The notes beneath the pieces were generated by a model that saw only the letters and a program-made list of their open reading frames with translations, did not search any database and was not told the origin of the DNA. Positions 14,801 through 44,329 of a DNA stretch of 64,000 bases are shown one piece after another. The stretch is taken from contig CM077599.1 of NCBI GenBank assembly GCA_039654915.1, forward strand, positions 67,012,501 to 67,076,500. Reading direction: 5' to 3'. The DNA comes from Aquilaria yunnanensis. Its lineage: Eukaryota; Streptophyta; Magnoliopsida; Malvales; Thymelaeaceae. Made by a program: the position numbers and the translations under genes. The first letter of the stretch is position 1. Each line of letters starts with the position of its first letter.

Positions 14801-15575
14801 GCTTCCAGTGTCCAGGTTGCTTACAATGGAAACACTCCCCTTCCTTTGCCACATCACCCTTTGGTTTTAGTGCAGCTGAAAAAGAATTAGCATTGGACTT
14901 TCCTTTAGCTTTATCCTTCTTCTTGTTGGCTTTTCCATTTCCCTTGCCCTTTTGAACCATCAAAATTGGATTAGCCTTCTTAAGGTTTTGCTCAATAGTT
15001 TTGAACATGGTGAGCAATTCAATGAGGGACTTGTCAAGGTTGTTCATGTTATAGTTCATGACGAATTAACTATAACTTTCAGGCAACGATTGCAAGACTA
15101 CATCAACAGTCAATTCTTTCTGAAGAGCAAATCCCAAACTCTCAAGATTCTCAATGTACCCAATCATCTTGAGTGCATGAGGACCCATGGGACTTCTTTC
15201 AGACATTTTTCACTGAAACAATGCCTTAGAGGTTTCAAACCTCTCATGCCTAGCTTACTCTTGGAAGAGCATTTTGAGATGTTTGATCATATTAAATGCC
15301 CCCATGTTTTCATTTTGCTTCTGAAGCTCAAATTCCACGGTAATAAGCATAAGGCAAGCAACATCCAAAGCATCATCAGAATGCCTCTTGTGAGCATCCC
15401 TTTCAGCTTTTGGAGCAGTGGAGGTAGGCTCATTCGAAATGGGCTGCTCTGGGACATAAGCCTTTCGCTTGAGGACTATCCTCAAGTTTTGGTACCATTT
15501 GAAAAAGTTGGTCCTATTCAATTTTTCTTTTTCAAGGATTGATTGCAACAAAAGTGTCGATGTGTTTTGTGCCAT
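11807..15575 (-). pseudogene. Copia gag-pol polyprotein, decayed
   Basis: Gag begins at 15575 (N-terminal region with NRTNFFKWYQNLR). The knuckle CFHCKQPGHWKHNC and the protease motif WVLDTGCGYHIC lie in 15059-14619. Integrase pieces are at 14504-14019 (HCCLGHINEARISKL, HSDVRGPM, FTDDFSR) and 13799-13608. Reverse transcriptase is at 13169-12708 (QMDVKTAFLNGKL, YGLKQA) and 12598-12281 (DLGKAAYVLGIKI). An RNase H remnant lies near 12000-11807. The order PR-IN-RT-RH is diagnostic of Ty1/copia. Several frameshifts and stops break the frame, so the copy cannot encode a working polyprotein. Confidence 0.9.
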
Positions 15576-27310: not shown

Positions 27311-27465
27311 TATATTATTTTTTTCAAATTTTTGAGATATAAAAAATAGATTTAGAAAATGTTTCAAAGATATTTTTTTGAAGGGGCGGAACCAGCGCTC
27401 ATGTTGCTGGTGTCACCGTGCGTTACTTTAGGAGTCATGAGAGTTCAGCATAATTATAATATCCT

Positions 27466-30096
27466 TGTGGCAACGTCGGATTTTCGGGAGTCGCCACCAA
27501 TCTGTTTACCTAGGTCGATTGGACACCTTAAAATTGGTCTGCGAGAGTTCGGGAGTTCGGGAGTACGGTTACGCTAAAACAACTTTGTTATAGCGCCCAA
27601 AATTGGCACCTTAGTTGATTTTAATTTTGTTTTACTTTGCTTTAAAAAAATTCAGTTAATTTTCAAACTAAAAATTTTAACTGAATTAGTCGAAATGTGG
27701 ATTTTTTAAGTTAAGTTGATATTTCCGAACCATGGACTCTGCCGAGTCATTTGGACACGGAAGATTTTGATTCCGAACCATGGACTCTGCCGAGTCATTT
27801 GGACACGGAATTTGGTGAAATTTTAAACAATTTTATCCATATTGTAAAAATATGAATTTTTATCTTTTTATTTAATTTATATAGTTTTTTTTAAAAAAAA
27901 AATGTTGATATTTCCAAACCGTAGATCCTGCCGGATCATCCGGATATGGAAATTAATTTAAATTTAATTTATTATTAGTTATTTAATTAATTACTAAATG
28001 GCCCATGCAGACTGAAATTTTCAATGTGTGATTTTCGATTATGTCAAACTAATTTTAGATTAATCATTAAAGAATCTATCTAATTTAATCATGCTTAAGC
28101 TTAACATCAATTTCTAAACTAATTCATAACTTTAATAATCCAAACAACACTAAAAAAAATAAGTAAAACAGTGGCTAATTTGTAAATCAGATCAATATTA
28201 GAGTCTCGAATAGACAAATCAAATAAGACCAGGGGCAAATTATTTATTAAAAATATTTATCTAACCGATTCGCACAATTATCCTTAATATTAATTCTTTA
28301 AGTTTATTCCTGCTCTTAATCAAATGAACAAAAAAAAGACATAAAAGAAAATAAACATTAATGGCCAAATTATAAATCAAAACAACCTTAAAGTCTCAGA
28401 TGAACAAATCAACTAAATCCGAGGACAAATTATTTATTAAAAATATTTATATAACCTAATCACATAATTAAACTTGATGTTAATTCCTAAGTTAATTTAT
28501 ACCTTTAATTAGCTGAACAAACAAAAATATGATAGAAAATAAATGAATTTAAGGAGTTAATAGCAAATTAAAAAAAAACAAAATTAAAGTCTCAAATTGA
28601 CAAATTAAATGAATCCAGGAGCAAGAATTAGGCTAAAATTATGGACTTTCAAATTAGATCCGGGTCGACACGGGTCGGTTTGAGATCTGAGTTTCGTTAT
28701 TTAATTTTAATTTTTATTTTGTTTGCTTTAAATAATATCCATTAATATCAAAACCATGGATTCTAACCGAACCACCTGGATATGGATTTTGTAATTTACT
28801 ACCGTCCTAAATTCATCCTTAAATTTTCATTAAAACCCGCTCAGAGTTGAATTTCGTAAATATGATCTTTTAGATGCGTTACGTAAACATGAGTTTTAAA
28901 CTTATGCTAACTGTGGAAAGTTAAAATCAATACATAAGTAAAAATCTGATCTAACCTAGACATACTATTTTATATTAACTATCCAACAAATTCATGGTCC
29001 AAAATAATAAAACGAGCAATTAAAAAAGAAAAGCAAACTATAAACAAAAACAATGCTGTAAGTGATTGATCTGCAAGAGAAAATGAAGTTAGTAACTTGT
29101 ATGGATAAAATAAAGATAACCAAGGACTAAATGCGAATTTTTACCCAAAAAATAAAAACTTTGACTCAGTCAAAACGTAAAAACGCGTTTGTTTCATCTT
29201 CAATCTTCACTTCCTGATTTTCTCCGACGTCGGAGGAAGAAAGCAGCTGGGCAAGGGAGCTGGCGCGGCGGAGCACGTACGGAGGGAGACTGGAGGCGAG
29301 AACGAGGTACGACGGCAGGGGGCGGTGCTGGAGGAGAGACCGACGGCGTACGAGCGCGGCAGAGGACGACGGCTAGGGGGCGCTGGAGCTGGGTGGCTGG
29401 TGGCGCAACGCGAGGGTGATCCGGCTGGCGGGTGACTGTGCGGTTGGCAGCAGGGCAGGTGTGCGAGCCGGAGGGAGAGAGATTCTGGAGCGAGAGCCGG
29501 TGAGAGGTGAGAGAGGGAGAGAGTTGTTGCGAGAGGGAGAGAGAGAAAGACGAGAGAATGGAGAATTATGTTGTGAGCTCTGAGCCCTGTAGGAGTTCGA
29601 GCTAAGTTTTTTTTTATTTTTCTTGATCGGAAAGGCTGGACGGACAAGGGAAGAGAAGAAAAACAGAACTTGATTAAGAGTAAGAGAAAGTATTGTTGAG
29701 GGAGGTCGAGCTCTGAGCCCAGGAGAGCTCTGATTGCTGGTTAAGTAGAAAGAAAAGAAGAAGCGAGAAGGCTCTGGAGAAAGACAAAGAGGGGAGAAGT
29801 CTCTGGAGAGAGCCAGATTTTTCTCTCTTTTTTTTTTTCTTTTAATAATAACAAATAATAATTAACAATTAATTTAACTTTCTAATACACACACAGATAT
29901 ATATATTATTTTAAAGCTAATTCTATAAAATAAAAATGCCCCCCATAAGCTAAAAAATTAATTAATTAAATTTTTTTATTTAAATTTTTTTAATTTTTGG
30001 TAATAATAATAATAATAATAATAATAAATTAATTTTTTTATTTAATTTTTTCTTAAAATTTTTTTTTTAATAGCCGGACGAAATTGGGTGTCAACA
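27466..30096 (-). repeat. 3' LTR of the cargo retrotransposon
   Basis: Minus strand TGTTGACACC...GTTGCCACA. It contains a 44-bp internal duplication (two 'ccgaaccatggactctgcc' units near 27725-27810) and a GC-rich, CT-repeat zone at 29200-29830 that is probably the transcript leader. Frames in that zone are compositional and not taken as genes. Near-identical to 40637-43263. Confidence 0.95.
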
Positions 30097-30109
30097 GCTG
30101 CCCCCCTTT
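30097..30109 (-). other. Polypurine tract of the cargo retrotransposon
   Basis: Minus strand AAAGGGGGGCAGC immediately precedes the TGTTGACACC start of the 3' LTR. Confidence 0.85.
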
Positions 30110-30189
30110 ACATGCTTCATGTGACATGATGTATGCAAAGTCGTTACCAAATTTCGTCCGGCTTAGCTAGGCATTGAGAACCTTCTCGT

Positions 30190-31445
30190 CGCCTAAATTA
30201 TGAGGTTAAGGAACTCTCCTTAAAACCTCGGCGATAGGAGCATTCCTACCGTTGATTGTTTTCGAGACAAAGGTTCCATCCTTAAAATCCCGACGATAGG
30301 AAATTGATTGAATAAAAATTGATTAATTTCGAGGCAAAGGTTCCATCCTTAAAACCCCGGCGATAGGAGCAGTCCTACCGTTGAAGGAAAATTGATTGTT
30401 TCCGAGGCAAAGGTTTCATCCTTAAAACCCCGGCGATAGGAGCAGTCCTACCGTTGAAGGAAAATTGATTGTTTTCGAGGGAAATGTTCCATCCTTAAAA
30501 CCCCGACGATAGGAGCAGTCCTACCGTTGAAGGAAAATTGATTGTTTTCGAGGCAAAGGTTCTATCCTTAAAACCCCGACGATAGGACCAGTCCTACCGT
30601 TGAATGAAAATTGATTGATTTCGAGGCAAAGGTTCCATCCTTAAAACCTCGGCGATAGGAGCAGTCCTACCATTGATTTGTTTTCGAGACAAAGGTTCCA
30701 TCCTTAAAATCCCGACGATGAAAATTGATTGTTTTCGAGGCAAAGGTTCCATCCTTAAAACCCCGACGATAGGAGCAGTCCTACCGTTGAAGGAAAATTG
30801 ATTGTTTCCGAGGCAAAGGTTTCATCCTTAAAACCCCGGCGATAGGAGCAGTCCTACCGTTGAAGGAAAATTGATTGTTTTCGAGGCAAAGGTTCCATCC
30901 TTAAAACCCCGACGATAGGAGCAGTCCTACCGTTGAAGGAAAATTGATTGTTTTCGAGGCAAAGGTTCCATCCTTAAAACCCCGATGATGAAAATTGATT
31001 CTTTTCGAGGCAAAGGATCCATTCTTAAAACCCCGATGATGAAAATTGATTGTTTTCGAGGCAAAGGTTCCATCCTTAAAACCCCGATGATGAAAATTGA
31101 TTGTTTTCGAGGCAAAGGTTCCATCATTAAAACCCCGATGATGAAAATTGATTGTTTTCGAGGCAAAGGTTCCATCCTTAAAACCCTGATGATGAAAATT
31201 GATTGTTTTCGAGGCAAAGGTTCCGTCCTTAAAACCCCGACGATGAAAATTGATTATTGTCGAGGCAAAGGTTCCATCCTTAAAACCCCGATGATGAAAA
31301 TTGATTGTTTTCGAGGCAAAGGTTCCATCCTTAAAACCCCGACGATGAAAATTGATTGTTTTCGAGGCAAAGGTTCCATCCTTAAAACCCTGATGATGAA
31401 AATTGATTGTTTTCGAGGCAAAGGTTCCATCCTTAGAACCTCGTT
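30190..31445. repeat. Minisatellite, about 20 units of 51 or 73 bp
   Basis: The core is 'gattgttttcgaggcaaagg' plus 'ttccatccttaaaaccccga'. The first half mostly has 73-bp units with an extra 'ggagcagtcctaccgttga' segment. The half nearer LOG has 51-bp units. As 51 is 17 codons, long frames stay open on both strands (about 30901-31503 minus with a 17-residue repeat, about 30985-31545 plus). It sits between the last cargo gene and the polypurine tract, the position of hypervariable 3' repeats in Tat/Ogre elements. A coding role is not supported. Confidence 0.9.
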
Positions 31446-31995
31446 GAAATTGAAATTGATTGTGGAGAAAAACTCTTTCCTCCTTTTTAAGTACCTCAGA
31501 CAATCGAAGTTGAAATGTTCTATTCGGAAGTGTGAATTTTCATAATAGGTGAGTGCAGAAATTTAGACTTCGATAAGATGCGTGAATCTTGATGATGACA
31601 ATAACACTAACAAATTATGTAAAGGGAACGGATGTTTGGAATCAATATCCAAGGTTCATCTAATATTTTCTTCAGTAAATATAGATTCCCTTGTGAGATA
31701 TGTCATCCAAATAAGGTTGAAGCTTAACTACCCCAAAATGTCATGCCTAGTAAACCTAATAGGATGCGTCTCAAGAGTAACAAAAATTACTCTTTACTCA
31801 GCCATTCCAACCTAAAGGCATTGTCCTATGGTTTTAATATCAGCATGGACGAAACTATATTATAAAAAAAGAAATTCCCTGAAAAGAAAAACTGAAACGC
31901 GAAAGAAAATGCTGATAATAAAACTAAAGGACAAGAAAAACGGATCAGATCGCTTCTTTCTTCTACAATACTTCAACAGGGTGAGTAGAGGACCA
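31446..31995 (-). other. 3' flank of LOG inside the retrotransposon
   Basis: About 550 bp between the LOG stop and the minisatellite, with no supported gene. Probably 3'-UTR. Confidence 0.4.
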
Positions 31996-32625
31996 TTATG
32001 GGAGTGAACTGGTCGGGAAAGACTGTCGTGTCCAGTCTATCTGAATCATTGCTGGATCTGGTTCAGGAACAAAAGCTTGTATTTTATCTAGCAATTCTTC
32101 AGCAGTTGTTGCGGATATTATGATTCGCCGTGCCACTCTTGATATGAAATTCTTCTGCATAGCATAATCCATAAAAGCTATCAGACCTGTAAAGAAATTG
32201 TTAACATTTAAAAGCCCAATGGGTTTCTTATGCAAATTAAGTTGGGTCATGGAAGCAATTTGAAAGACTTCTCCCAATGTGCCAAAACCACCTGGTAGAG
32301 CGATAAAAGCATCAGCATTTAAAAGCATTTGTAACACACGCTCTTGCAAATTTTTAACCACTAATTCTTCTCCAATCGTGCCCCCAGAAACAAATTTCAG
32401 AGGTCCAGGGATAATACCCAGAACTTGACTTCCTCCTAGAGATGCTGCTGATGCTACACCTCCCATTAATCCGACACTACCTCCTCCATAAACTAAATGT
32501 ATTTTTCGCTCAGCTAATACTCTACCCAAATGGTTGGCTGCTTTTAAATACTCTTCATCTTTTCCAGGAAAAGCCCCAGAAAATACACAAATACTTCGGG
32601 ATTTACGAGTTGGGGTTTTCTCCAT
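31996..32625 (-). CDS. LOG-type cytokinin riboside 5'-monophosphate phosphoribohydrolase, intronless, 209 aa
   Basis: LOG enzymes release active cytokinin bases from their nucleotides in one step, in the cytosol or nucleus. The frame runs the usual LOG length. Seen: ICVFSGAFPGK at 12-22, the nucleotide-binding VYGGGSVGLMGG at 45-56, LGIIPGPL at 69-76, QERV at 94-97 where the family usually has HERK (Arg kept, Lys changed to Val), ADAFIALPGGFGTLGE at 104-119 with the conserved Glu, and KKPIGLLNVN. Host LOG genes contain several introns; this copy has none, which suggests capture through RNA. An in-frame ATG 60 bp upstream is rejected because a TATA box falls inside that extension. It lies in the sense strand of the retrotransposon, downstream of the NABP-like genes. 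Activity is plausible but unproven given the Lys change. Confidence 0.88.
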   Translation of the reverse strand: MEKTPTRKSRSICVFSGAFPGKDEEYLKAANHLGRVLAERKIHLVYGGGSVGLMGGVASAASLGGSQVLGIIPGPLKFVSGGTIGEELVVKNLQERVLQMLLNADAFIALPGGFGTLGEVFQIASMTQLNLHKKPIGLLNVNNFFTGLIAFMDYAMQKNFISRVARRIIISATTAEELLDKIQAFVPEPDPAMIQIDWTRQSFPTSSLP

Positions 32626-32654
32626 TCTTATCCTTATCCTTGTGAGAAAAGAGG

Positions 32655-32664
32655 ATATATTTAT
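32655..32664 (-). promoter_or_regulatory. TATA box of the LOG gene
   Basis: Minus strand CTATAAATATA, about 30-40 bp before the chosen ATG. The implied leader is very short, so the real start site may differ slightly. Confidence 0.5.
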
Positions 32665-32689
32665 AGAGATGAAGAGATAAGGCAATAAT

Positions 32690-33345
32690 TTTATTTTTCA
32701 AGAATGGATACATTATTGCCAGCTATTCATAGTAGTCACGGGTATGACTGTGGTCAGGTATGGGTACACTATCATTAAAAGAGGAGGAAAATTTTCAAAA
32801 TAGCTACTAGCATGTACAGTAGGCACTATTGTAGCTTACGTCAGGAGTAGGTACGTGATTGTTGGAAGAGAATGAAAATTTTAAAAGTGGCAACTATTTA
32901 CAGTAGTCATAACTGTATCTCATGTCAGGAGTGGGTACATTATTGTCAAAAGAGGAGGAAAATTTCAAAAGCAACTAAAATATACAGTAGTCGCGATTGT
33001 AGCTTATGTCAGGAGTAGGTACGTGATTGTCGGAAGTGAAGGAAAATTTCAAAAGTGACAGCTATATACAGTAGTCCGTGTCAGGAGTGGGTACATTATT
33101 GCCAAAGGAGGAGGAAAATTTCAAAAGCGACAGCTAGCATGTACAGTATCGTGACTATGGCTCATGTCAGGAGTGGATACATTATCGCCGAAAGGGGAGG
33201 AAAATTTCAAAAGCGACAGCTAGCACGTACAGTAATCGTGACTTTGGTTCACGTCAGGAGTGGATACATTATTACCAAAAGGGGAGGAAAATTTCAAAAG
33301 CGACAACTAGCACGTACAGTAATTGTGACTTTGATCCTCGTCTTC
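32690..33345. repeat. Tandem upstream repeats of LOG with TGACGT motifs, about 84-bp unit
   Basis: Seven degenerate units each contain 'tacagta', a 'gtcaggagtgg' core and 'gaggaaaatttcaaaag'. On the minus strand the core reads CCACTCCTGAC followed by GTAAG, GTGAA or decayed ATGAG/ATAAG. Two units (near 32838 and 33253) keep TGACGT; others show TGACAT, a CG-to-TG type change. TGACGTAAG matches the as-1 element bound by TGA-class bZIP factors. The unit is related to the 3' flank of the NABP-like genes. Confidence 0.75.
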
Positions 33346-33381
33346 CACTGGCTTTGCGTCCAGTAATGGCTTCAATGCTTT

Positions 33382-33930
33382 CTATGAATCGGTGATTTGC
33401 ATCTCATCTAACTTTCTCACAAACTGGCAAACAGGGTCGTTTAGGGTCAGATTCCCAAGACTGTAACGATCTCGTTCTTTTTGGAAAATTATCCATAATC
33501 CAACAACCTCAAATTGCACTATTCCGCAAGAATGCGCTTCAAGAACCTCTCGGATATCTTCCAGAGATTCCTTACGCAAGCCATTCTTGATGAATTTTAT
33601 TCTATCTTCACGATTTCTGGTAATCACTCCTGGAGAACGACATTTAGCACCGCAAATCCACCATCCACAATTATGACAGACGCCTAGCCTCTTTGCTCTT
33701 CTCTTTTTGGCATAAGCGCTTTTTCCAAAGCCGGGCATACGGGGAAAGAACACATCTGGAACTTCACCAGCCGAACGAACCTTAGCTTCGATTAGCCATC
33801 GCACATTATCAGGAATGCCTTTGTGCATAAATACTCTGAATCGTTCACATCTAGCTTGATAAATCTTTTTAAGAACATTTATTGGGAAGGAAGGAAAATA
33901 CTTTCGTAGGGCGGAAAGAGAAGACTCCAT
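33382..33930 (-). CDS. NABP-like zinc-knuckle protein C, 182 aa
   Basis: Intact 182-codon frame. Layout: N-terminal helical part with LRKYFPSFPINVLKKIY; a conserved GIPDNVRWLIEAKV block at 38-51; a basic patch GKSAYAKKRRAKR at 69-81; a C-x2-C-x4-C-x3-C knuckle (Cys 85, 88, 93, 97); NREDRIKFIKNGL at 106-118; and an acidic/hydrophobic tail. The order Gly-x-Ser-x-Tyr-Ala-basic cluster, knuckle, then F-I-x-x-G is what I know from the cysteine-rich nucleic-acid-binding proteins of carla- and vitiviruses, several of which suppress RNA silencing. That link is by motif only. Start chosen by alignment with copy A; an ATG 15 bp earlier is not shared. About 70% identical to copy A with no gaps. A TATA box lies about 60 bp upstream. 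Confidence 0.8.
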   Translation of the reverse strand: MESSLSALRKYFPSFPINVLKKIYQARCERFRVFMHKGIPDNVRWLIEAKVRSAGEVPDVFFPRMPGFGKSAYAKKRRAKRLGVCHNCGWWICGAKCRSPGVITRNREDRIKFIKNGLRKESLEDIREVLEAHSCGIVQFEVVGLWIIFQKERDRYSLGNLTLNDPVCQFVRKLDEMQITDS

Positions 33931-33988
33931 TGATGAATGAGGCAAAGAAAGAAATTAGTGATTGTAGGAAACGGAAATAACTAACACA

Positions 33989-33996
33989 TATTTATA
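33989..33996 (-). promoter_or_regulatory. TATA box of NABP-like gene C
   Basis: Minus strand TATAAATA about 60 bp before the ATG, in a block also present before copy B (CATCACTATAAAT). Confidence 0.55.
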
Positions 33997-34146
33997 GTGA
34001 TGAAAAGGATAATGCGTTAATTACACTTGCAGAAGCAAGTACATTATTATCAAAAGAAAAGACAAATGACAGCTTATATGTACAGCAATCATGACTGTGG
34101 CTCTCATCTTCCACTGATTTATGTCCAGTAATGGCTTCAATGCCTT

Positions 34147-34694
34147 CTATAAGTCGGGGATTTGCTTCCCATCCAGTTTTCTTACAAACTAACAAATAGG
34201 GTCGTTTAAAGTCACATTCCCAAGACTGTAACGGTTTCGTTCTTTATGGTAAGTCCTCCATAAACCGATAATTTCACCTTGCACTTTTCCACAAGAATGC
34301 GTTTCAAGAATCTCTCGGATATCTTCCAGAGATTCCTTACGCAGGCCATTCTTAATGAATTTTCTTTTATCTTCACGATTTATGGAGATGTATCCTAAAG
34401 AGCGACATTTAGTATTACAATTCCATCGCCCACATTTATAACACACGCCTAGTCTCTTTGCTCTTCGCCTTTTGGCATAACGGCTTTTACCTAAACCGGG
34501 CATGCGAGGCATAAATGCATCTGGAACTTCACCCGCCAGACGGACCTTAGCTTCAATTATCTACTGCACATTATCGGGAATGCCTTTGCGTGTAAAAACT
34601 CTGATTCTTTCACATCTAGCAAGGTAGATCTTTTAAGGACTTTTATTGGAAGGGAAGGAAAGTATTTTCGCAGTGCAGAAAGAGTATAATCCAT
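34147..34694 (-). pseudogene. NABP-like zinc-knuckle gene B, broken
   Basis: Full-length counterpart of copies A and C, starting with MDYTLSALRKYF. It has a one-base loss near codon 20, a nonsense codon where the others have the Trp of DVRW, and another near the C-terminus after DPIC. The middle, from about 34512, stays open through the basic patch GKSRYAKRRRAKR, the CYKCGRWNCNTKC knuckle and FIKNGL. It lies tandemly between the intact copies with similar 5' and 3' flanks, so the gene plus control region was duplicated as a module. Confidence 0.8.
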
Positions 34695-34813
34695 TGATGA
34701 GAGAAGAATTTGAGAGGAGAGGGAATGAATCAGTTATTGTAGGAGACTGGAATAACCGACTTTAGAAGTCACGGGGTATCTTATCCGCTGCTTAATCAGA
34801 AGGAAGAACACGC

Positions 34814-34821
34814 ATTTATAG
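34814..34821 (-). promoter_or_regulatory. TATA box of NABP-like gene B
   Basis: Minus strand CTATAAAT about 120 bp before the ATG, in the same sequence context as the copy C box. Confidence 0.5.
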
Positions 34822-34982
34822 TGATGAAAAGGGATAACGTGTCGATTACACTTAGGGGAGCATGTACATCTGTCAAAAGAAAATGCAAACTTTTCCAAAT
34901 ATAACAAATTGTATGTACAGTAATTGTGACTGTGGCTCACATCTTCCACTGGCTTTACGTCCAGTAACGGCATTAACGACTT

Positions 34983-35531
34983 CTATGAGTCGAGGATTTG
35001 CTTGCCATCCAGTTTTCTTACAAGCTGGCAAACAGGGTCGTTTACAGTCAGATTCCCGGGACTGTATCGTTCTCGTTTTTCATGAAAAATGCTCCATAAA
35101 CCAAGAAGTTCACGTTGCACAGATCCACAAGAATGCGTCTCAAGAGTCAATTGGATATCATCCAACGAATCCTTACTCAGGCCATTCTTAATGAATCGTA
35201 TTTTATCTTCTCGATTATCAGAGATCATCCCTAAAGAACCACATTTAGTATTACAAGTCCACCGTCCACATTTATGGCAGACTTGTAACCTTTTCGCTCT
35301 TCGCTTTTTGGCATAAGAGCTTTTGCCTATACCAGGCATGTGAGACACAAATGCGTCTGGGATTTCACCTGCCAGACGAACCTTGGCTTCGATTAACCAC
35401 CGCACATCTTCAGGGATTCCTTTGTGCATCAGAACTCTTAATCGTTCACAGCGAACTTGGTAGATCTTTTTGAGAATGTTCATTGGGAGAGAAGGAAAAT
35501 ATTTTCGTAAGACAGAAAGAGTAGGATCCAT
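34983..35531 (-). CDS. NABP-like zinc-knuckle protein A, 182 aa
   Basis: Intact frame of the same length as copy C; 127 of 182 residues agree by hand count, with no gap. Key parts: LRKYFPSLPMNILKKIY at 8-24, GIPEDVRWLIEAKV at 38-51, GKSSYAKKRRAKR at 69-81, Cys 85/88/93/97 in a C-x2-C-x4-C-x3-C knuckle, NREDKIRFIKNGL at 106-118, and a conserved ETHSCG at 131-136. The knuckle spacing differs from the retroviral Gag knuckle (C-x2-C-x4-H-x4-C). The basic patch could bind nucleic acid or act as a nuclear signal. It is first of three tandem modules in transcription order. Upstream lie three 140-bp repeats with TGACGTCA sites. Best guess: a gene related to plant flexuous-virus nucleic-acid-binding proteins. 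Confidence 0.8.
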   Translation of the reverse strand: MDPTLSVLRKYFPSLPMNILKKIYQVRCERLRVLMHKGIPEDVRWLIEAKVRLAGEIPDAFVSHMPGIGKSSYAKKRRAKRLQVCHKCGRWTCNTKCGSLGMISDNREDKIRFIKNGLSKDSLDDIQLTLETHSCGSVQRELLGLWSIFHEKRERYSPGNLTVNDPVCQLVRKLDGKQILDS

Positions 35532-35659
35532 TTTTTAGAGGGAAATAAAAGAAAGAAGAGAGGAAAGAATTAGTTATTATGGGCAACTGAGAGAACCGAC
35601 TTGAGAATCACGGAGTACCGTATCCGCCGCTTAACCGGAAAAGTAGATCCTACTTCATT

Positions 35660-36060
35660 TTGATGTGATAGATATTTTTTTTATCCTGGATATTCTATCG
35701 AGCTAACGTCGATCCAGTCCTCGATTATTGAATCCATTGTCCGCTTTTGACAAATTTTCAACGACAATATTTCTTGATGTCTACCTTATCTTTGACCACA
35801 GCTATCTCTTATCTTGGATACTACTAGCTGACGTCAATCCTGTCCTTCCAGGTGTAGTCTCGATTATTAAATCGATTGCCAGGCTTTTGACAATATTGTC
35901 TACTTTATATTTTTTGATATCTGCCTTATCCTAGGCTATAGCTATCTCTTATCTTGGATACTACTAGCTGACGTCAATCCTGTCCTTCCAGGTGTAGTCT
36001 CGATTATTGAATCAATTGCCAGGCTTTTGACATATTGTCTACCTTATCATTGAATTCCTG
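35660..36060. repeat. Three 140-bp repeats with TGACGTCA sites upstream of NABP-like gene A
   Basis: Units start near 35660 (diverged), 35801 and 35941; the last two are nearly identical over about 115 bp. Each of the last two has the palindrome TGACGTCA (35829-35836 and 35969-35976), a strong plant bZIP site; the first has the changed CTAACGTCG. They lie 130-530 bp before gene A in its transcription direction. Confidence 0.8.
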
Positions 36061-36827
36061 ATGCGGGTTGGTCCCTCATATTAGCTGTGTATCCAGTGAT
36101 AGATTGGTAAGAGCTGATGACATTGAGATCTCAGCTTATACTGCTGTAACTGTGCTGTGAATGTGATTCCTGTTTGGTCCTTGTCATGTAAAAGCCATGC
36201 ATGCATGATGTGAAATGCATGAATGCAGAGCATGCGTAGCTGATGTTTTTTTTTGTATGGATCTAGTTCTTTATGTCTTTGTTTTACTGGATCCTCTTTG
36301 TGATGGCCTTCTTGGACTATCATTGAATCTCTTTATGCTTCCCAGCTCTTGTCCATTGCCTCAAAAGCCCGGCTCTTTTCAAAATCCCATTTTCTTGACT
36401 TGTTCTTGAATTTTGGCTTCAATTTCTTTAATGTTTGCCCGTCTCATACTTTATGTCTCTTTGGGTACTCATCCTTTGTCATGGATTTCATAGCATCAAA
36501 GGCTTTACTTTCAATGTCTGTCCTTTTTCTGGTGTCCGGGCTGACACATACTTATCCCCATGTTATAATCTGAATGATTGCTCTTCTTTGAGCTCAAGTT
36601 TTGATCCATAAGACTTGCCCCCTTGTCTATTGAACTTCTTTGTTGGCAGTACTCCTCTTACGCTTCGTAGAGACTACTTTGCCCCCCTGAATATGGTATT
36701 TATGTGGATAAAAGGTATCATCTCGCCTTTGATTTAACAGAAGGTCGAGCATTTCTAGACCTTTGTGCTGGCACTTGATCGTAAATTTCTCTTACAAGAA
36801 CCACATCTTATTAAAGAAAGACTCAAG
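36061..36827. other. Retrotransposon internal region, no recognised gene
   Basis: Contains short minus-strand frames (36323-36081, 80 codons; Lys-rich text near 36600-36330) and two TTGCCCCC stretches near 36616 and 36680. Nothing like protease, RT or integrase is seen. Confidence 0.4.
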
Positions 36828-37019
36828 CTATCTCCTCACTTTTAAGTCTACATACATTAATGAATAATGGTTTGGCCTTAAAGAAAAACTTTCATCAATT
36901 TGCAAAGCTTGACAAAGTAATTTACGGTCTTTGTTTTTAATTAAAATATCCTGCCATTCTTCCATTTCCAACTCGAAGACATAAACTGTGCAAGGCAATA
37001 AGGTATAAACATGATTCAT
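36828..37019 (-). CDS. Hypothetical 63-aa protein in the retrotransposon
   Basis: I do not recognise it. The composition looks protein-like (VYVFELEMEEWQDIL, then a Lys/Arg-rich part, then a C-terminal HYSLMYVDLKVRR). It lies in the element's sense strand between gag and the NABP-like genes. A minus-strand TATATAAAG at about 37315-37323 is 300 bp upstream. It may be a degraded fourth cargo gene or chance. Confidence 0.3.
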   Translation of the reverse strand: MNHVYTLLPCTVYVFELEMEEWQDILIKNKDRKLLCQALQIDESFSLRPNHYSLMYVDLKVRR

Positions 37020-37160
37020 AAGGATAGCCTTTTAGCTGAATGAGGATGATATCGAGAGGTAACTGTTAGGCGTGAGGAAAATTAAGTTTGAATGTTTTTT
37101 TTTTGTTGCAGTCTTTTAGCTGAATGAGAATGATATTAAGAGGTAAATATTAGGCCTGAG
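37020..37160. repeat. Short duplication upstream of the 63-aa frame
   Basis: 'cttttagctgaatgagga' and 'gagaggtaactgttaggc' near 37030 recur near 37110 in changed form, a roughly 80-bp offset. Confidence 0.5.
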
Positions 37161-37489
37161 TAAAGTTAAGTTTGAGTGGTGTGAAAGAAGGGTCTTTTAA
37201 TACTACTCGTGAGCAGATCTGATTATGGTAAAAAACTTAATAGTGATGACCTCAAACTTGCCACGTTTTCTAGAAAGTTGGACCTCATCTGTTGCCCCCC
37301 AACTATCGTAATCTTTATATACGCTTGTCTTGAGGGTTGCTTTTGTCTTCTAAACCGCCTTTGCAGGTTTTTAGTCTAGAATCCATAGCTTACTTTTTTC
37401 TTTTTCTTTCTTTGGCTCTAACTTGAGCTTCGTTTCTTTTCTTTTCTTGTTTTTTTTTTATTTCCCTTTTTTTTTTTTGTGAGCTATGG

Positions 37490-37820
37490 TGATAACATAC
37501 TTGATAACTCTCTTGAAGTGAGATGACTCAAGTGGCCTTGCTTGCTCGTGCTTGTTCTCAGTCCTTTTTGTTTTGGATTTTCCCTTGTTGCTTTTTTTTT
37601 TATGGAAGGGATGAACTTCTCTTTTCGGAGTTTGTGTTGCAAAGAACTGAGATCATAGCCCTCTTGAAGTGAAATGATTCAAGTGGCCTTAGTTGCTTGT
37701 GTTTGCTCTCAGTCTCTTTTTTTTTGTTTTGGATTTTCCCTTTAATGGCTTTTGATGGAATGGATGAACTTCTTTCCTTTGTTGGAATTTGTGTTGTGGA
37801 AAACTGAGAATTTTTTTTTT
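37490..37820. repeat. Two-copy tandem repeat, about 150 bp
   Basis: 'ctcttgaagtgagatgactc' followed by 'aagtggcctt' near 37510 recurs near 37660, followed in both by 'tttggattttccctt' and 'gatgaacttct'. Poly-T runs make the length vary. Non-coding. Confidence 0.7.
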
Positions 37821-38059
37821 TTGTATTGAGCATTTGTGAGAATTGGGAGGCCACTGAAGTCATTTAATATGAGAGCTAACTTCTTTGGAAGCTAATCCCG
37901 GACTTCTTGCAAGGATGTTGATAACCACTGTGAATTCTTTTTTTTAAGAGTTGGGGTGCAACATATGAAATCATTCTTGCTAGATTTAGTAGTACTTTCA
38001 AGATCACCACTATCAAATCTCCCTTAACTTTTTATTTTCACCCACGAGTAGTATCATTT

Positions 38060-38330
38060 AGAAAGCAAAGTATGATGGCAATAATAGTTAGTGCAATGGC
38101 GAAGATTGAGAGATAGAGGTAAAAATGAAATTTTTGGTAAAAAGTGGTAGAATGCCCACATAATATCTTTTTGTTGGAGAACAAAAAGAATTACCGGTTG
38201 TCAAAAAGTAAAGTGTGATGGCAATAATGGATAGTATAATGGCAAAGAGTGTAAAAATGGAAAGTAGTAGAATGCACGCATTACATCTTTTTGTTGTACC
38301 AGAAAAAGAATACCAGGTGTCCATCTAACA
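38060..38330 (-). repeat. Two-copy repeat of about 130 bp with a 78-codon hydrophobic frame
   Basis: 'gtatgatggcaataat' and 'atctttttgttg' blocks occur twice at about 130-bp spacing. A minus-strand frame (38324-38088) spans both, with one membrane-type segment (CILLLSIFTLFAIILSIIAI). The repeat structure argues against a real gene. Confidence 0.45.
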
Positions 38331-38877
38331 AAGACTACACCCTAGATTCTGGACTAAATCTAGGAGATTTTTACTATTAGATTACTTTTGCAAGCTTTCA
38401 AAGATACAAGTTTATTCAAAGGATTCCCTGTCATTCAAAAGTGTGTGTGGACTATTAGGTCAGATCTGACTTGGAGCCCTTCCAAAATTAATGTAATTCC
38501 AGCTCAAAATCTTCACTTTCAATTACCAATCACATCGGGCCTAGCAACTTGAACTCGGCCAACTGTTGGACCTTGAGTTTCAGTGCCACACAATTTTTTA
38601 GTTATATTTGGCATTTGGGTCATTCCAACTTGGAAGAAGATGCTACTTGATTTTTGCTACCATTGGTATGGGTGATAGTAGGTTTGTAGCTTGTAGAAAT
38701 TGAATCGACTTGAGTAGCTTTCTTCCCATAAGTGGTATGTGGTGCTGATGAGGGAGCCTTGAAGATTACAGTCTCAATAGAATATCTTTTCACTTGTATC
38801 GTGAATGGTATTGTACCATAGAACCAGGAGATGATGTCATGGACAACTCCACTTCTTTTATTGAAATATCCTCCAAT

Positions 38878-39800
38878 TCACGAATCGACCAGCTTTCCTG
38901 TTTTAATTCCAAATTCGATCTTTTCTCCAGATAATACCATATTTGAAAAGCTACTTGAAGTGTTCCCAATTAGTTTTTCATAAAATGGTCTATTTAGTGT
39001 TTGGATAAACAGGGTGATCAGTTCCCTTTCTATCATAAGTGGTTGAACTTGTGCGACTAAGTCTCTCCACCTTTGGGCGTACTCCTTAAAGGTCTATTGT
39101 TCTTTCCTTTCCATATTCCGGAGAGTTTGGCGATTCGGGGCCAAGTCCATAACATGCTTGTAATTATTGATGAAATCCTGAGCGAGGTCATTCCATGTTT
39201 TGATGTTCTTTGGACCTTGACTTATATACCAATGTAGTGCTGACTTTATAAGACTTTTTTGAAAAAGTGTTATCCACACTTTCTCGTCTTTTGTGAGTGG
39301 TTGTAGTCTTCTTAAAAACAACGTGATGTGAGTGATAAAGCAACTTGTTCTAACGTATTTCACAAAGTCTGGCATCTTAAAGTCTGAAGGAATCACAACG
39401 TCTGGCATCAAACAAAGATCGTTCACCGAAAGAGATCCAAATACAGTGCCTCATTTAATGGCCCGAAGTCTCTTTTCTATGGTCTCGATTTTTTGAGTAT
39501 CCTTTTCTTCTTTAAGCAAGGGTTTCTTTTCTTCAAAAATTGGATTTACCTTAGATGAATGTTATCAGATGGGCCTGAATCATGAAAGAGTTTCTCTTGA
39601 ACTGAGATCCATTGTTGAGTGAATTCAGGAGGATAGGTGAGATCTTGTGGTTCTTTGACGAGGACTTGGGTTGCTTTCCCGTTGATTAACTCCATTAATT
39701 ATTTTATTTGCTCGGCCATGTTTTCTATCTTGGACTCTATCTCTATGAGACGTCCTTCGATTTGTTCTGCGATTAATCTTGTTTGGAGCAGAGTTGAATA
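38878..39800 (-). pseudogene. Ty3/gypsy gag, decayed
   Basis: Gag packages the element RNA into particles. Seen: a coiled-coil N-terminus (RLIEIESKIENMAEQIK, stop), a Pro-rich linker, then the capsid core at 39426-39094 (LQPLTKDEKVWITLFQKSL, ALHWY, KTWNDLAQDFINNYKHVMDL). After a stop the same frame continues FKEYAQRWRDLVAQVQP and TLNRPFYEKLIG, ending GIKTGKLVDS at 38878. This is the standard plant gypsy/Tat Gag domain. At least three stops break it. No zinc knuckle, protease or RT follows. The primer site and 5' LTR lie about 0.8-0.9 kb upstream. Confidence 0.85.
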
Positions 39801-40615
39801 TCGGTGTTGATGTCCAATTTTATCCTTTTTAAAAGTTAGATTTATTTTTTTAGATTCTATGTGTATGTGATTGATGCAATGGATGCAATGGATGCATGCA
39901 TGCAATAAGTGAGTCTGATTATCCAATATCATGGAACTTCAAGACTTTTAGTTGTCATTATAAAGACCAAAAAGTTAGCATAATTTGATACGTGGTTTTG
40001 ATGCATGAAGAATAATTGCACAAGAAAGATAAGGTTATTAATAAGTTAAATAGTAATTAACAACTCATGAAGTATTATGGATAAACAAGTTAAAACCATA
40101 CGAAGAAAAGTGTAGAGTAACAACATAGCATAACAAGGATATGCTTATGGCGTTGGTAAAATGGTAGAAATTCTATGGTCAGTTCTATGGTTAAGTGGGG
40201 AGTTCTATATGCATAAGGTGGTTTATCAAAAAGGCAAGGGATAGTCCCCGAATCCCGTCACTAAATCATAGTGACGGCCCGATTCCTTACCCTCTAGGGT
40301 TAATGTAAGGAATGGATTAATTCGAGTCGTAGCTTTTCGTGGGCCCATGCAGAGACTAACCGTCTCAGGAGGCAATACACTACTTTGCTACTTTGAAACC
40401 GGTGAAGGCTTGGAGACCATGGCCTCACAAGGACAACAACACCAATTCCGCTTAGAAAGAATTGTGTTCGATTTGAGGAAGCTCGGGTATAGAGCTTCAT
40501 ATTGTGAATGCATTATGCATGTTTAGAATAAGTAAATATAACATATAAATCCACATAAAAATAAACAAAACAGAACAAAATAAATCAACTTTTAGACTTG
40601 ACTCACTAACCAGGA
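39801..40615 (-). other. Leader between primer site and gag
   Basis: About 0.8 kb of non-coding DNA, the normal place for a packaging leader. No ORF1-type extra gene, as found in true Ogre elements, could be recognised. Confidence 0.4.
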
Positions 40616-40633
40616 TCCCCAGCGGAGTCGCCA
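40616..40633 (-). other. Primer binding site of the cargo retrotransposon
   Basis: Minus strand TGGCGACTCCGCTGGGGA, three bases inside the 5' LTR. Of the type (tRNA-Arg, from memory) used by Ogre/Tat elements. Confidence 0.8.
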
Positions 40634-40636
40634 AGC

Positions 40637-43263
40637 TGTGGCAACGTCGGGTTTTCGGGAGTCGCCACCAATCTGTTTACCTAGGTCGATTGGACACCTT
40701 AAAATTGGTCTGCGAGAGTTCGGGGGTTCGGGAGTACGGTTACGCTAAAACAACTTTGTTATAGCGCCCAAAATTGGCACCTTAGTTGATTTTAATTTTG
40801 TTTTACTTTGCTTTAAAAAAATTCAGTTAATTTTCAAACTAAAAATTTTAACTGAATTAGTCGAAATGTGGATTTTTTAAGTTAAAGTTGATATTTCCGA
40901 ACCATGGACTCTGCCGAGTCATTTGGACACGGAAGATTTTGATTCCGAACCATGGACTCTGCCGAGTCATTTGGACACGGAATTTGGTGAAATTTTAAAC
41001 AATTTTATCCATATTGTAAAAATATGAATTTTTATCTTTTTATTTAATTTATATAGTTTTTTTTTTAAAAAAAAAGGTTGATATTTCCAAACCGTAGATC
41101 CTGCCGGATCATTCGGATATGGAAATTAATTTAAATTTAATTTATTATTAGTTATTTAATTAATTACTAAATGGCCCATGCAGACTGAAATTTTTAATGT
41201 GTGATTTTCGATTATGTCAAACTAATTTTAGATTAATCATTAAAGAATCTATCTAATTTAATCATGCTTAAGCTTAACATCAATTTCTAAACTAATTCAT
41301 AACTTTAATAATCCAAACAACACTAAAAAAAATAAGTAAAACAGTGGCTAATTTGTAAATCAGATCAATATTAGAGTCTCGAATAGACAAATCAAATAAG
41401 ACCAGGGCAAATTATTTATTAAAAATATTTATCTAACCAATTCGCACAATTATCCTTAATATTAATTCTTTAAGTTTATTCCTGCTCTTAATCAAATGAA
41501 CAAAACAAAGACATAAAAGAAAATAAACATTAATGGCCAAATTATAAATCAAAACAACCTTAAAGTCTCAGATGAACAAATCAACTAAATCCGAGGACAA
41601 ATTATTTATTAAAAATATTTATATAACCTAATCACATAATTAAACTTGATGTTAATTCCTAAGTTAATTTATACCTTTAATTAGCTGAACAAACAAAAAT
41701 ATGATAGAAAATAAATGAATTTAAGGAGTTAATAGCAAATTAAAAAAAAACAAAATTAAAGTCTCAAATTGACAAATTAAATGAATCCAGGAGCAAAAAT
41801 TAGGCTAAAATTATGGACTTTCAAATTAGATCCGGGTCGACACGGGTCGGTTTGAGATCTGAGTTTCGTTATTTAATTTTAATTTTTATTTTGTTTGCTT
41901 TAAATAATATCCATTAATATCAAAACCATGGATTCTAACCGAACCACCTGGATATGGATTTTGTAATTTACTGCCGTCCTAAATTCATCCTTAAATTTTC
42001 ATTAAAACCCGCTCAGAGTTGAATTTCGTAAATATGATCTTTTAGATGCGTTACGTAAACATGAGTTTTAAACTTATGCTAACTGTGGAAAGTTAAAATC
42101 AATACATAAGTAAAAATCTGATCTAACCTAGACATACTATTTTATATTAACTATCCAACAAATTCATGGTCCAAAATAATAAAACGAGCAATTAAAAAAG
42201 AAAAGCAAACTATAAACAAAAACAATGCTGTCAGTGATTGATCTGCAAGAGAAAATGAAGTTAGTAACTTGTATGGATAAAATAAAGATAACCAAGGACT
42301 TAATGCGAATTTTTACCCAAAAAATAAAAACTTTGACTCAGTCAAAACGTAAAAACGCGTTTGTTTCATCTTCAATCTTCACTTCCTGATTTTCTCCGAC
42401 GTCGGAGGAAGAAAGCAACTGGGCAAGGGAGCTGGCGCGGCGGAGCACGTACGGAGGGAGACTGGAGGCGAGAACGAGGTGCGACGGCAGGGGGCGGTGC
42501 TGAAGGAGAGACCGACGGCGTGCGAGCGCGGCAGAGGACGACGGCTAGGGGGCGCTGGAGCTGGGTGGCTGGTGGCGCGACGCGAGGGTGATCCGGCTGG
42601 CGGGTGACTGTGAGGCTGGCAGCAGGGGAGGTGTGCGAGCCGGAGGGAGAGAGATTCCGGAGCAAGAGCCGGTGAGAGGTGAGAGAGGGAAAGAGTTGTT
42701 GTGAGAGGGAGAGAGAGAAAGACGAGAGAATGGAGAATTATGTTGTGAGCTCTGAGCCCTGTAGGAGTTCGAGCTAAGTTTTTTTTTTTTCTTGATCGGA
42801 AAGGCTGGACGGACGAGGGAAGAGAAAAAAAAAAGAACTTGATTAAGAGTAAGAGAAAGTATTGTTGAGGGAGGTCGAGCTCTGAGCCCAGGAGAGCTCT
42901 GATTGCTGGTTAAGTAGAAAGAAAAGAAGAAGTGAGAAGGCTCTGGAGAAAGACAAAGAGGGAAGAAGTCTCTGGAGAGAGCCAGATTTTTCTCTCTCTT
43001 TTTTTTTTTTTCTTTTAATAATAACAAATAATAATTAACAATTAATTTAACTTTCTAATACACACACAGATATATATATTATTTTAAAGCTAATTCTATA
43101 AAATAAAAATGCCCCCCATAAGCTAAAAAATTAATTAATTAATTTTTTTTATTTAAATTTTTTTAATTTTTGGTAATAATAATAATAATAATAAATTAAT
43201 TTTTTTATTTAATTTTTTCTTAAAATTTTTTTTTTAAGATCCGGACGAAATTGGGTGTCAACA
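40637..43263 (-). repeat. 5' LTR of the cargo retrotransposon
   Basis: Counterpart of 27466-30096. It differs by scattered substitutions and by poly-T/AAT length changes. Ends next to ATCCT. Confidence 0.95.
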
Positions 43264-43268
43264 ATCCT

Positions 43269-44130: not shown

Positions 44131-44329
44131 ATTGATGAAAGACTAGGTTTTGGTAATGATTTTCTCCGCCTTCTCATTCAAGGGAAAACCAGTACATATA
44201 GGAGATTATAACCCGATAAAAATGGAAAAGAGATATATACACGGAGATTTACTTGCTAATATTTACACTTCCGAATATTCCAATATCCTAATACCGAATA
44301 TTCAAATATCTTAATACCCTTAAGTTGGA

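What the first reader, a model, noticed from the sequence alone, without database searches (positions are those of the whole stretch)
27466..43263. Gag-only LTR retrotransposon carrying a cytokinin-activation gene and three virus-like NABP genes
Seen: LTR pair, perfect ATCCT duplication, primer site, polypurine tract, decayed gag, no recognisable pol, and four cargo genes in the sense strand between gag and the 3' LTR. Known: TR-GAG elements lack pol, and Tat/Ogre elements may carry extra frames. Inference: the element gained a toolkit combining a cytokinin activator (cell division, delayed senescence) with possible silencing-suppressor-like proteins, which could favour its spread in the germ line. 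I know of no described family with this pairing.
Basis: partly seen in the sequence, partly recalled or inferred. Interest (0 to 1): 0.95.

Follow-up and report, generated by a model that had tools for sequence, protein, structure and literature searches.

The report
Retrotransposon carrying LOG and virus-like genes
This stretch of a plant genome is one worn copy of a very abundant jumping element whose relatives, with and without their copying enzymes, carry the same extra genes, one resembling a plant hormone enzyme and a small array resembling a plant-virus RNA-binding protein, and most of these genes bear the mark of natural selection.

Summary
In detail: two 2.63-kb LTRs (98.8% identical), a perfect ATCCT duplication, primer site, broken gag, no detectable pol, three NABP genes (middle one broken) and one LOG gene, all in sense. 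It is not a one-off. LOG and NABP genes lie at the same place in 8 of 8 copies picked by gag; NABPs accompany LOG in 20 of 21 copies picked by LOG. The genome also holds pol-bearing relatives: an old, decayed one (gag-pol-NABPx2-LOG) and an abundant one with open 1144-aa pol frames, followed by three or four NABPs and, where the fetched DNA reached, LOG. RT-RNaseH-second RNaseH-integrase order places them in the Tat clade. NABP1, NABP3 and LOG show purifying selection (dN/dS about 0.15-0.3 between diverged copies); NABP2 more weakly. LOG keeps its catalytic residues, but residues that hold the cytokinin base and side chain are replaced, so 'cytokinin activator' is doubtful. LOG in Ty3/gypsy elements is in print (Citrus, poplar); my searches found no report of NABP in LTR retrotransposons or of the pairing. 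Best reading: a conserved accessory-gene module of Tat elements, perhaps acting against silencing or on host regulation.

The parts
27461..27465 (.). target-site duplication ATCCT (left)
27466..30096 (-). 3' LTR (2631 bp)
30097..30109 (-). polypurine tract next to the 3' LTR
   Evidence: sequence; boundary
30252..31463 (-). 73-bp and 51-bp tandem-repeat arrays between LOG and the 3' LTR
31996..32625 (-). LOG-like gene, one exon, 209 aa; TATAAATA 40 bp before the ATG
32735..33333 (-). 84-87-bp repeats between NABP3 and LOG, promoter-like by position only
   Evidence: function inferred
33382..33930 (-). NABP3, intact, 182 aa; TATAAA 66 bp before the ATG
34147..34694 (-). NABP2, broken by a 1-base deletion and stops; TATAAA 126 bp before the ATG
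34983..35531 (-). NABP1, intact, 182 aa; no TATAAA within 150 bp
35600..39000 (-). stretch without recognised genes standing where pol would be; its 3' part also lies between integrase and NABP1 in pol-bearing copies (the last bases overlap the gag remnant)
38881..39827 (-). gag remnant, broken; open frames of about 640-700 aa occur in other copies
40616..40633 (-). primer-binding site TGGCGACTCCGCTGGGGA (primer tRNA not tested)
40637..43263 (-). 5' LTR (2627 bp)
43264..43268 (.). target-site duplication ATCCT (right)

Best explanation
The window holds one fairly young but already broken copy of a high-copy Ty3/gypsy family of the Tat clade. Elements of two forms occur in this plant: pol-bearing (gag-pol-NABPn-LOG, n = 2 to 4) and pol-less (gag, filler, NABPx3, LOG). 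Both carry the same accessory module in the same order in the sense strand (shown). NABP1, NABP3 and LOG, and more weakly NABP2, are under purifying selection while lineages transpose (shown). LOG, NABP2 and NABP3 each have a TATA word upstream (shown), so they are probably transcribed on their own (inferred). The pol-less form presumably moves with enzymes of a pol-bearing one (inferred from related gag and shared cargo; LTRs and primer sites of pol-bearing copies were not fetched). Most likely role, inferred only: the NABPs are nucleic-acid-binding regulators that blunt silencing or alter host transcription, as carlavirus p12 does. The LOG-like protein is a phosphoribohydrolase with a rebuilt base pocket, so its substrate is probably not the usual cytokinin nucleotide. 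I put about 0.35 on this specific role.
For: Seven LOG-picked copies fetched over much of their length: NABP1-NABP2-NABP3-LOG in that order in 7 of 7, gag sequence in 6 of 7 (the seventh lacks its 5' part), no pol of their own matched. Ten further LOG-picked copies: NABPs in 9 of 10. Eight gag-picked copies: LOG 8 of 8, NABP1 8 of 8, NABP3 8 of 8, a separate NABP2 in 7 of 8; LOG intact in 6 of 8, with 1 broken and 1 cut by the fetched end. Pol-bearing L038/L005 has gag, RT, RNaseH, second RNaseH, integrase, two NABPs and LOG. Two pol-picked copies have 3 and 4 NABP frames after integrase; LOG follows in the one read further. dN/dS. TATAAA: LOG 21 of 21, NABP2 19 of 19, NABP3 21 of 21, NABP1 0 of 17. 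LOG residues: against PMC4979012 passages. Viral parallel: PMC7588395 abstract and passages.
Against: NABP2 shows weaker constraint (0.37; 0.56). dN/dS used intact frames only, which lowers it; some close pairs are not significant alone (window against copy A, p 0.15 and 0.18). Copy L035 has LOG but no NABP. The cargo of the old pol-bearing copy is itself broken: two stops in its first NABP and an early stop in its LOG (L005). LOG of the one pol-picked copy read there stops about ten residues early. In intact gag-picked copy L042 the PGGFGT word was not found. No expression or small-RNA data. Pfam similarity to viral NABP covers about 31-88 residues with modest E-values. Nothing here shows silencing suppression; that carlavirus p12 belongs to these Pfam families is recalled.
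Confidence: 0.8

Rival explanations
1. The LOG-like gene is a genuine cytokinin activator: the element raises active cytokinin locally, prolongs division in meristem or germ-line precursors, and so gains copies that are inherited; the NABPs add to this by pushing cell proliferation.
For: Catalytic Arg99 and Glu122 equivalents and PGGxGTxxE are kept in 16 of 16 own copies; the best solved relative is Arabidopsis At2g37210, 4.5e-51; other relatives mostly keep E121 (110 of 115), W129 (113 of 115) and M96 (87 of 115); [quoted passage not shown]
Against: Residues forming the adenine/prenyl pocket in CgLOG are changed in the own family: K100, H97, E125 and W129 in 16 of 16, M96 and E121 in 15 of 16 intact copies. 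In other relatives K100 is M, I or L in 113 of 115 and E125 is Q or H in 108 of 115.
Confidence: 0.25
2. The NABPs serve the element's own life cycle (RNA packaging, chaperoning or nuclear entry) rather than acting on the host, and their gene number varies by tandem duplication.
For: Basic zinc-finger-like proteins encoded downstream of gag or pol in nearly every copy read; a NABP follows an integrase frame also in contig L037; gene number 2 to 4.
Against: Gag already has its own CxYHxGxxGHxxxxC knuckle (read by eye); TATA words before NABP2 and NABP3 suggest separate expression.
Confidence: 0.3
3. Passenger genes: a host LOG and a viral gene were captured by chance and hitchhike without function.
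For: Many single copies are broken, as expected of dead retroelements; NABP2 constraint is weak.
Against: pN/pS 0.17-0.30 in the most diverged pair of each gene, Fisher p from 2e-7 to 1e-11; related LOGs in one clade come from plants that I recall as rosids and an asterid.
Confidence: 0.04
4. Assembly join or chimera.
For: None found.
Against: Perfect duplication at the ends and the same structure at many places on several chromosomes.
Confidence: 0.01

Closest known systems
Tat-clade Ty3/gypsy retrotransposons (Ogre/Retand)
   Same: The pol of related copy L038 runs RT, RNaseH, second RNaseH (RVT_3), integrase, the order given for Ogre and Retand in PMC6317226 (passages); long LTRs, tandem repeats and extra ORFs.
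   Different: Extra ORFs named for these lineages in passages of PMC6317226 (plant mobile domain, Transposase_28) and PMC11963269 (antisense TRP28) are other genes; here the cargo is NABP and LOG in sense. PMC6317226 set a 250-codon cut-off, above both genes.
YgdH/LOG-bearing LTR retrotransposons of Citrus and Populus (PMC9289625; Steinbauerova 2011, not held)
   Same: A LOG-type domain as an extra gene in Ty3/gypsy elements.
   Different: The PMC9289625 passages mention no NABP partner, pol-less form, selection or active-site change for it; the 2011 paper could not be read.
TR-GAG non-autonomous elements
   Same: LTRs, primer site, purine tract and gag without pol.
   Different: Here four conserved accessory genes remain and pol-bearing relatives carry the same kinds of genes (definition of TR-GAG recalled).
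Carlavirus/betaflexivirus NABP (PF05515, PF01623), e.g. chrysanthemum virus B p12 (membership recalled)
   Same: Basic stretch plus Cys-rich finger; Pfam cut-offs passed.
   Different: 182 aa with long N- and C-terminal regions; carried by a retroelement; no other betaflexivirus gene recognised among the ORFs scanned.
LONELY GUY phosphoribohydrolases
   Same: Protein family, catalytic Arg/Glu, PGGxGTxxE.
   Different: Single exon, separate clade from the two host LOGs compared, pocket residues replaced.

Membership tests
LTR retrotransposon | two direct LTRs, target duplication, PBS, PPT | tested here: met
Tat clade (Ogre/Retand) | second RNaseH between RNaseH and integrase | tested here: met
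   met in the pol-bearing relative L038; the window copy has no pol, so its membership rests on related gag and shared cargo
TR-GAG | gag present, pol absent, amplified | tested here: met
   0 of 5 pol pieces match the window or fetched stretches of copies A-G, apart from a separate element beside copy B. In 8 of 69 scored gag places the cargo begins within about 5.5 kb of the gag start, which leaves little room for pol; the other 61 were not checked
TR-GAG | no other genes (recalled) | tested here: not met
   NABP and LOG present
Cytokinin-activating LOG | PGGxGTxxE with catalytic Arg and Glu | tested here: met
   16 of 16 intact LOG-picked or window copies; among 12 in a second set, one (L042) lacks the PGGFGT word
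Cytokinin-activating LOG | adenine/prenyl pocket residues as listed for CgLOG, AtLOG3, CpLOG | tested here: not met
   against PMC4979012 passages
Cytokinin-activating LOG | phosphoribohydrolase activity on cytokinin nucleotides | not testable with these tools
   needs an enzyme assay
Viral NABP | score above Pfam gathering cut-off | tested here: met
   3 of 3 window NABP frames or pieces; at E 0.001, 31 of 35 aligned members match PF05515 and 28 of 35 match PF01623
Viral NABP | silencing suppression or transcription activation | not testable with these tools
   bench assay needed
Endogenous RNA-virus insertion | other viral genes adjacent | tested here: inconclusive
   of the element's ORFs only LOG, the NABPs, the gag piece and one further small ORF were scanned; none but the NABPs matched a viral family

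The most novel reading that the evidence does not exclude
Plant Tat-type and other OTA-type retrotransposons share an ancient accessory module, virus-type NABP zinc-finger genes in an array plus a LOG-derived nucleotide hydrolase with a new substrate, that works as a counter-silencing or host-reprogramming kit. NABP genes have moved between positive-strand RNA viruses and retroelements, in a direction still unknown.
Probability: 0.3. Interest if true: 0.9.

Novelty: new variant of a known kind. Interest (0 to 1): 0.72.

Why it matters
Most extra ORFs of plant retrotransposons lack known domains (PMC6317226 passages). Here is a module with recognisable relatives, high copy number, pol-bearing and pol-less carriers, and measurable purifying selection. 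It makes two questions directly testable: do plant retroelements encode virus-like silencing suppressors, and has an enzyme of hormone metabolism been turned to a new substrate by an element? It also suggests that many LOG-like gene models, such as the numerous Reevesia entries, may belong to retroelements (not tested for those).

Tried and rejected
Rejected: assembly artefact (recurrence at many places); one-off capture (same calls); cargo without function. A canonical endogenous virus insertion is disfavoured, but only part of the ORFs was scanned.

Led nowhere: the AlphaFold model of NABP had mean pLDDT 54.8, too poor for a fold search; a LOG model could not be queued. NABP in viral contigs: no relative with one sequence (6 stretches matched a pattern) or an alignment (44 stretches); in plasmid records: no match. 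Copy counts by exact word did not complete, so copy numbers rest on first-look candidates only. The NCBIfam cytokinin equivalog model does not separate the cases: the Arabidopsis LOG stretch also fails its cut-off. Paper searches; two were swamped by common terms.
Full report
Setting. The window is C7:67012501-67076500 of an unnamed 842-Mb assembly of 345 contigs. Its nearest named relatives are flowering plants. The species was not identified.

Observation. The element runs on the minus strand from 43263 to 27466. The LTRs are 2627 and 2631 bp, 98.78% identical, K2P 0.0123, with ATCCT on both sides. TGGCGACTCCGCTGGGGA follows the 5' LTR and a purine tract precedes the 3' LTR. In sense order it has a broken gag (38881-39827), about 3.4 kb without recognised genes, NABP1, a broken NABP2, NABP3, 84-87-bp repeats, LOG, and 73/51-bp tandem repeats. 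Five pol pieces from a related copy found no match in the window.

Recurrence. The LOG family search of the own genome returned 3310 first-look candidates. The best 150 were scored: 150 of 150 over the cut-off, 145 of 150 without a stop in the match, open frames 157-267 codons. This set is chosen for good LOGs, so it says nothing about how often LOG is intact. Seven of these copies were fetched over much of their length: NABP1-NABP2-NABP3-repeats-LOG in the same order in 7 of 7, gag sequence in 6 of 7; the seventh lacks its 5' part. None matched pol, apart from a separate Tat-like element beside copy B (RT 46% identical). Ten more LOG-picked copies: NABPs in 9 of 10. Copy L035 has gag and filler but no NABP. 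Four short loci (L003, L005, L006, L007) each show LOG with at least one NABP. So NABPs go with LOG in 20 of 21. For a sample not chosen by cargo I took eight of the 69 scored gag places (14395 candidates) and read 4.2 kb downstream. LOG is present in 8 of 8 (6 intact, 1 broken, 1 cut by the fetched end), NABP1 in 8 of 8 (5 intact), NABP3 in 8 of 8 (6 intact), and a separate NABP2 in 7 of 8 (4 intact).

Gag. Copy E has a 644-aa gag frame with Retrotrans_gag at 1.7e-11. All 69 scored gag places match over at least 622 of 644 residues, 51 of 69 without stops (chosen as best matches, and one is the query). In the other copies compared gag was broken or partial.

Relatives with pol. Copy L038/L005 (C1, 34.07-34.08 Mb) has gag, RVT_1, RT_RNaseH, RVT_3, Integrase_H2C2, then a NABP1-like gene, a second NABP and LOG. 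Its pol, its first NABP (two stops) and its LOG (early stop) are decayed. A search with its RNaseH piece gave 21833 first-look candidates; of 144 scored, all but the query are 92-93% identical to it, 138 share the score 559.3, and most lie in 1144-codon open frames. So an abundant and probably young pol-bearing family exists. Two of these were read downstream; they are 99.4% identical over their first 1.95 kb. L049 has three intact NABPs, the repeats and LOG, which L051 extends to a stop about ten residues early. L050 has three intact NABPs and a fourth running off the stretch; LOG would lie beyond the fetched DNA. Upstream parts of these two were not fetched. RVT_3 between RNaseH and integrase matches Ogre/Retand as described in PMC6317226 (passages). 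A 3.3-kb contig filed under a bacterial record, L037, carries a gypsy integrase frame followed by a NABP 71% identical to NABP1. I take it for plant contamination. Its integrase looks Athila-like from memory; its start holds the end of an RNaseH, and no second RNaseH was recognised there by Pfam. So NABP may not be confined to Tat.

Selection. NABP1, NABP2, NABP3 and LOG were intact in 13 of 18, 14 of 18, 12 of 18 and 16 of 22 copies, the window included. Broken or absent copies were dropped before dN/dS, which biases it down. Ratios of means were 0.17, 0.37, 0.28 and 0.32. For pairs with dS under 0.03 they were 0.28, 0.62, 0.56 and 0.76; for pairs with dS over 0.15 they were 0.16, 0.29, 0.29 and 0.29. 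That is the pattern of genes constrained while lineages transpose and then decaying after insertion. Most diverged pair of each gene: Fisher p 9.6e-12, 1.1e-8, 1.2e-7 and 1.9e-7; some close pairs are not significant alone. A second set (window, up to five LOG-picked copies, gag-picked copies and, for the NABPs, pol-picked copies; intact frames only) gave LOG 0.19 (12 sequences), NABP1 0.16 (12), NABP3 0.22 (10) and NABP2 0.56 (11), so NABP2 is the weak case. L037 NABP against window NABP1: dN 0.185, dS 0.935.

Own promoters. TATAAA lies within 130-150 bp of the start in 21 of 21 LOG, 19 of 19 NABP2 and 21 of 21 NABP3 upstream stretches, and in 0 of 17 for NABP1. The distance is 40-48 bp for LOG, mostly 66 bp for NABP3, and 87-127 bp for NABP2. 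Counts include short loci assigned to more than one NABP, and the copies are related, so these are not independent. Separate transcription is inferred.

LOG. In a 26-row tree the 22 element-type LOGs form one clade (100/99), apart from two Arabidopsis LOGs, which are also one clade, and two bacterial LOGs. With only two host LOGs the exact point of origin is open. Rows include Paulownia, Populus, Reevesia, Diplodiscus and Parasponia; that each is element-borne was not tested. Using the residue roles in PMC4979012 (passages): catalytic Arg99 and Glu122 are kept in 16 of 16 own intact copies and in 111 and 113 of 115 other relatives. Lys100 is replaced in 16 of 16 own copies and is M, I or L in 113 of 115 others. 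Glu125 is replaced in 16 of 16 and is Q or H in 108 of 115 others. The own family also has His97 to Gln 16 of 16, Trp129 to Met 16 of 16, Met96 to Leu 15 of 16 and Glu121 to Gly 15 of 16, whereas the others mostly keep Trp129 (113 of 115) and Glu121 (110 of 115) (the 115 are those of 195-235 aa among the 120 listed, less the near-identical P0121). In the second set 11 of 12 LOGs have the PGGFGT word; L042 does not. A kept catalytic centre with a rebuilt base pocket suggests a new substrate.

NABP. A protein search gave 259 relatives at E up to 0.01 among 301 candidates, 120 listed: one at 96% and the rest at 57-75% identity, many of 182 aa. Named sources are Populus, Xanthoceras and Orobanche. 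Of 35 aligned members, three of them from this genome, 31 match PF05515 and 28 match PF01623 at E 0.001. Two database LOGs (P0139, P0170) have contig lengths equal to those of two NABPs (P0009 8723, P0013 4511), which hints at the same contigs but was not verified.

Print. A LOG-type YgdH domain in LTR-retrotransposon consensus sequences of two Citrus species and poplar is stated in PMC9289625, citing a 2011 paper that I could not read. PMC6317226 counted extra ORFs of at least 250 codons (passages), so 182- and 209-aa genes would be missed. PMC11963269 (term search and passages), PMC7264820 (part 1 of 3, and a term search) and PMC3136472 (passages) do not mention the pairing in what I saw. 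The listings of searches showed no report of NABP in LTR retrotransposons; the library is partial and no supplement could be read.

Mechanism. Shown: a conserved, largely selected, sense-strand module in pol-bearing and pol-less Tat elements. Inferred: independent transcription, helper-dependent movement of the pol-less form, NABP action on silencing or transcription by analogy to chrysanthemum virus B p12 (PMC7588395 abstract and passages; its membership in these Pfam families is recalled), and a changed LOG substrate.

Noticed in passing
L037 1-3330 (DAIEQH010000041.1): A contig filed under a Nomurabacteria MAG carries a plant-type gypsy integrase frame and a NABP: apparent plant contamination in a bacterial record.
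   Followed up: partly
window 12708-15059 and 44256-45264: Ty1/copia polyprotein remnants on the minus strand on both sides of the element; only the right-hand one was scanned (RVT_2), the left one is judged by eye.
   Followed up: no
G000, e.g. C6:9403810 and C4:97091940: An abundant, probably young pol-bearing Tat family: 138 of 144 scored places share one score, mostly in 1144-codon open frames.
   Followed up: partly
window 27466-30096 against L009-L026 and L040: LTR ends of the window copy match other copies (about 0.1 kb at one end, 0.5 kb at the other) while the middle matches only in patches of about 70-84%, although internal regions are mostly 80-98% alike: perhaps LTR exchange between subfamilies.
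   Followed up: no
L035/L040 (C7:23857043-23869143): A copy with gag, filler and LOG but no NABP gene: the cargo can be lost in part.
   Followed up: partly
L044, L049, L050, L038/L005: NABP number varies from 2 to 4 per element, and upstream stretches differ between copies as if shuffled between NABP genes, suggesting tandem duplication and gene conversion.
   Followed up: partly
P0122, P0123 (Xanthoceras sorbifolium): Annotated proteins of 336-359 aa related to the element LOG; P0122 seems to hold two LOG parts in tandem (by eye).
   Followed up: no
window 32735-33333: 84-87-bp repeats between NABP3 and LOG contain TGACGT-like words, as in some plant and pararetrovirus promoters (recalled).
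   Followed up: no
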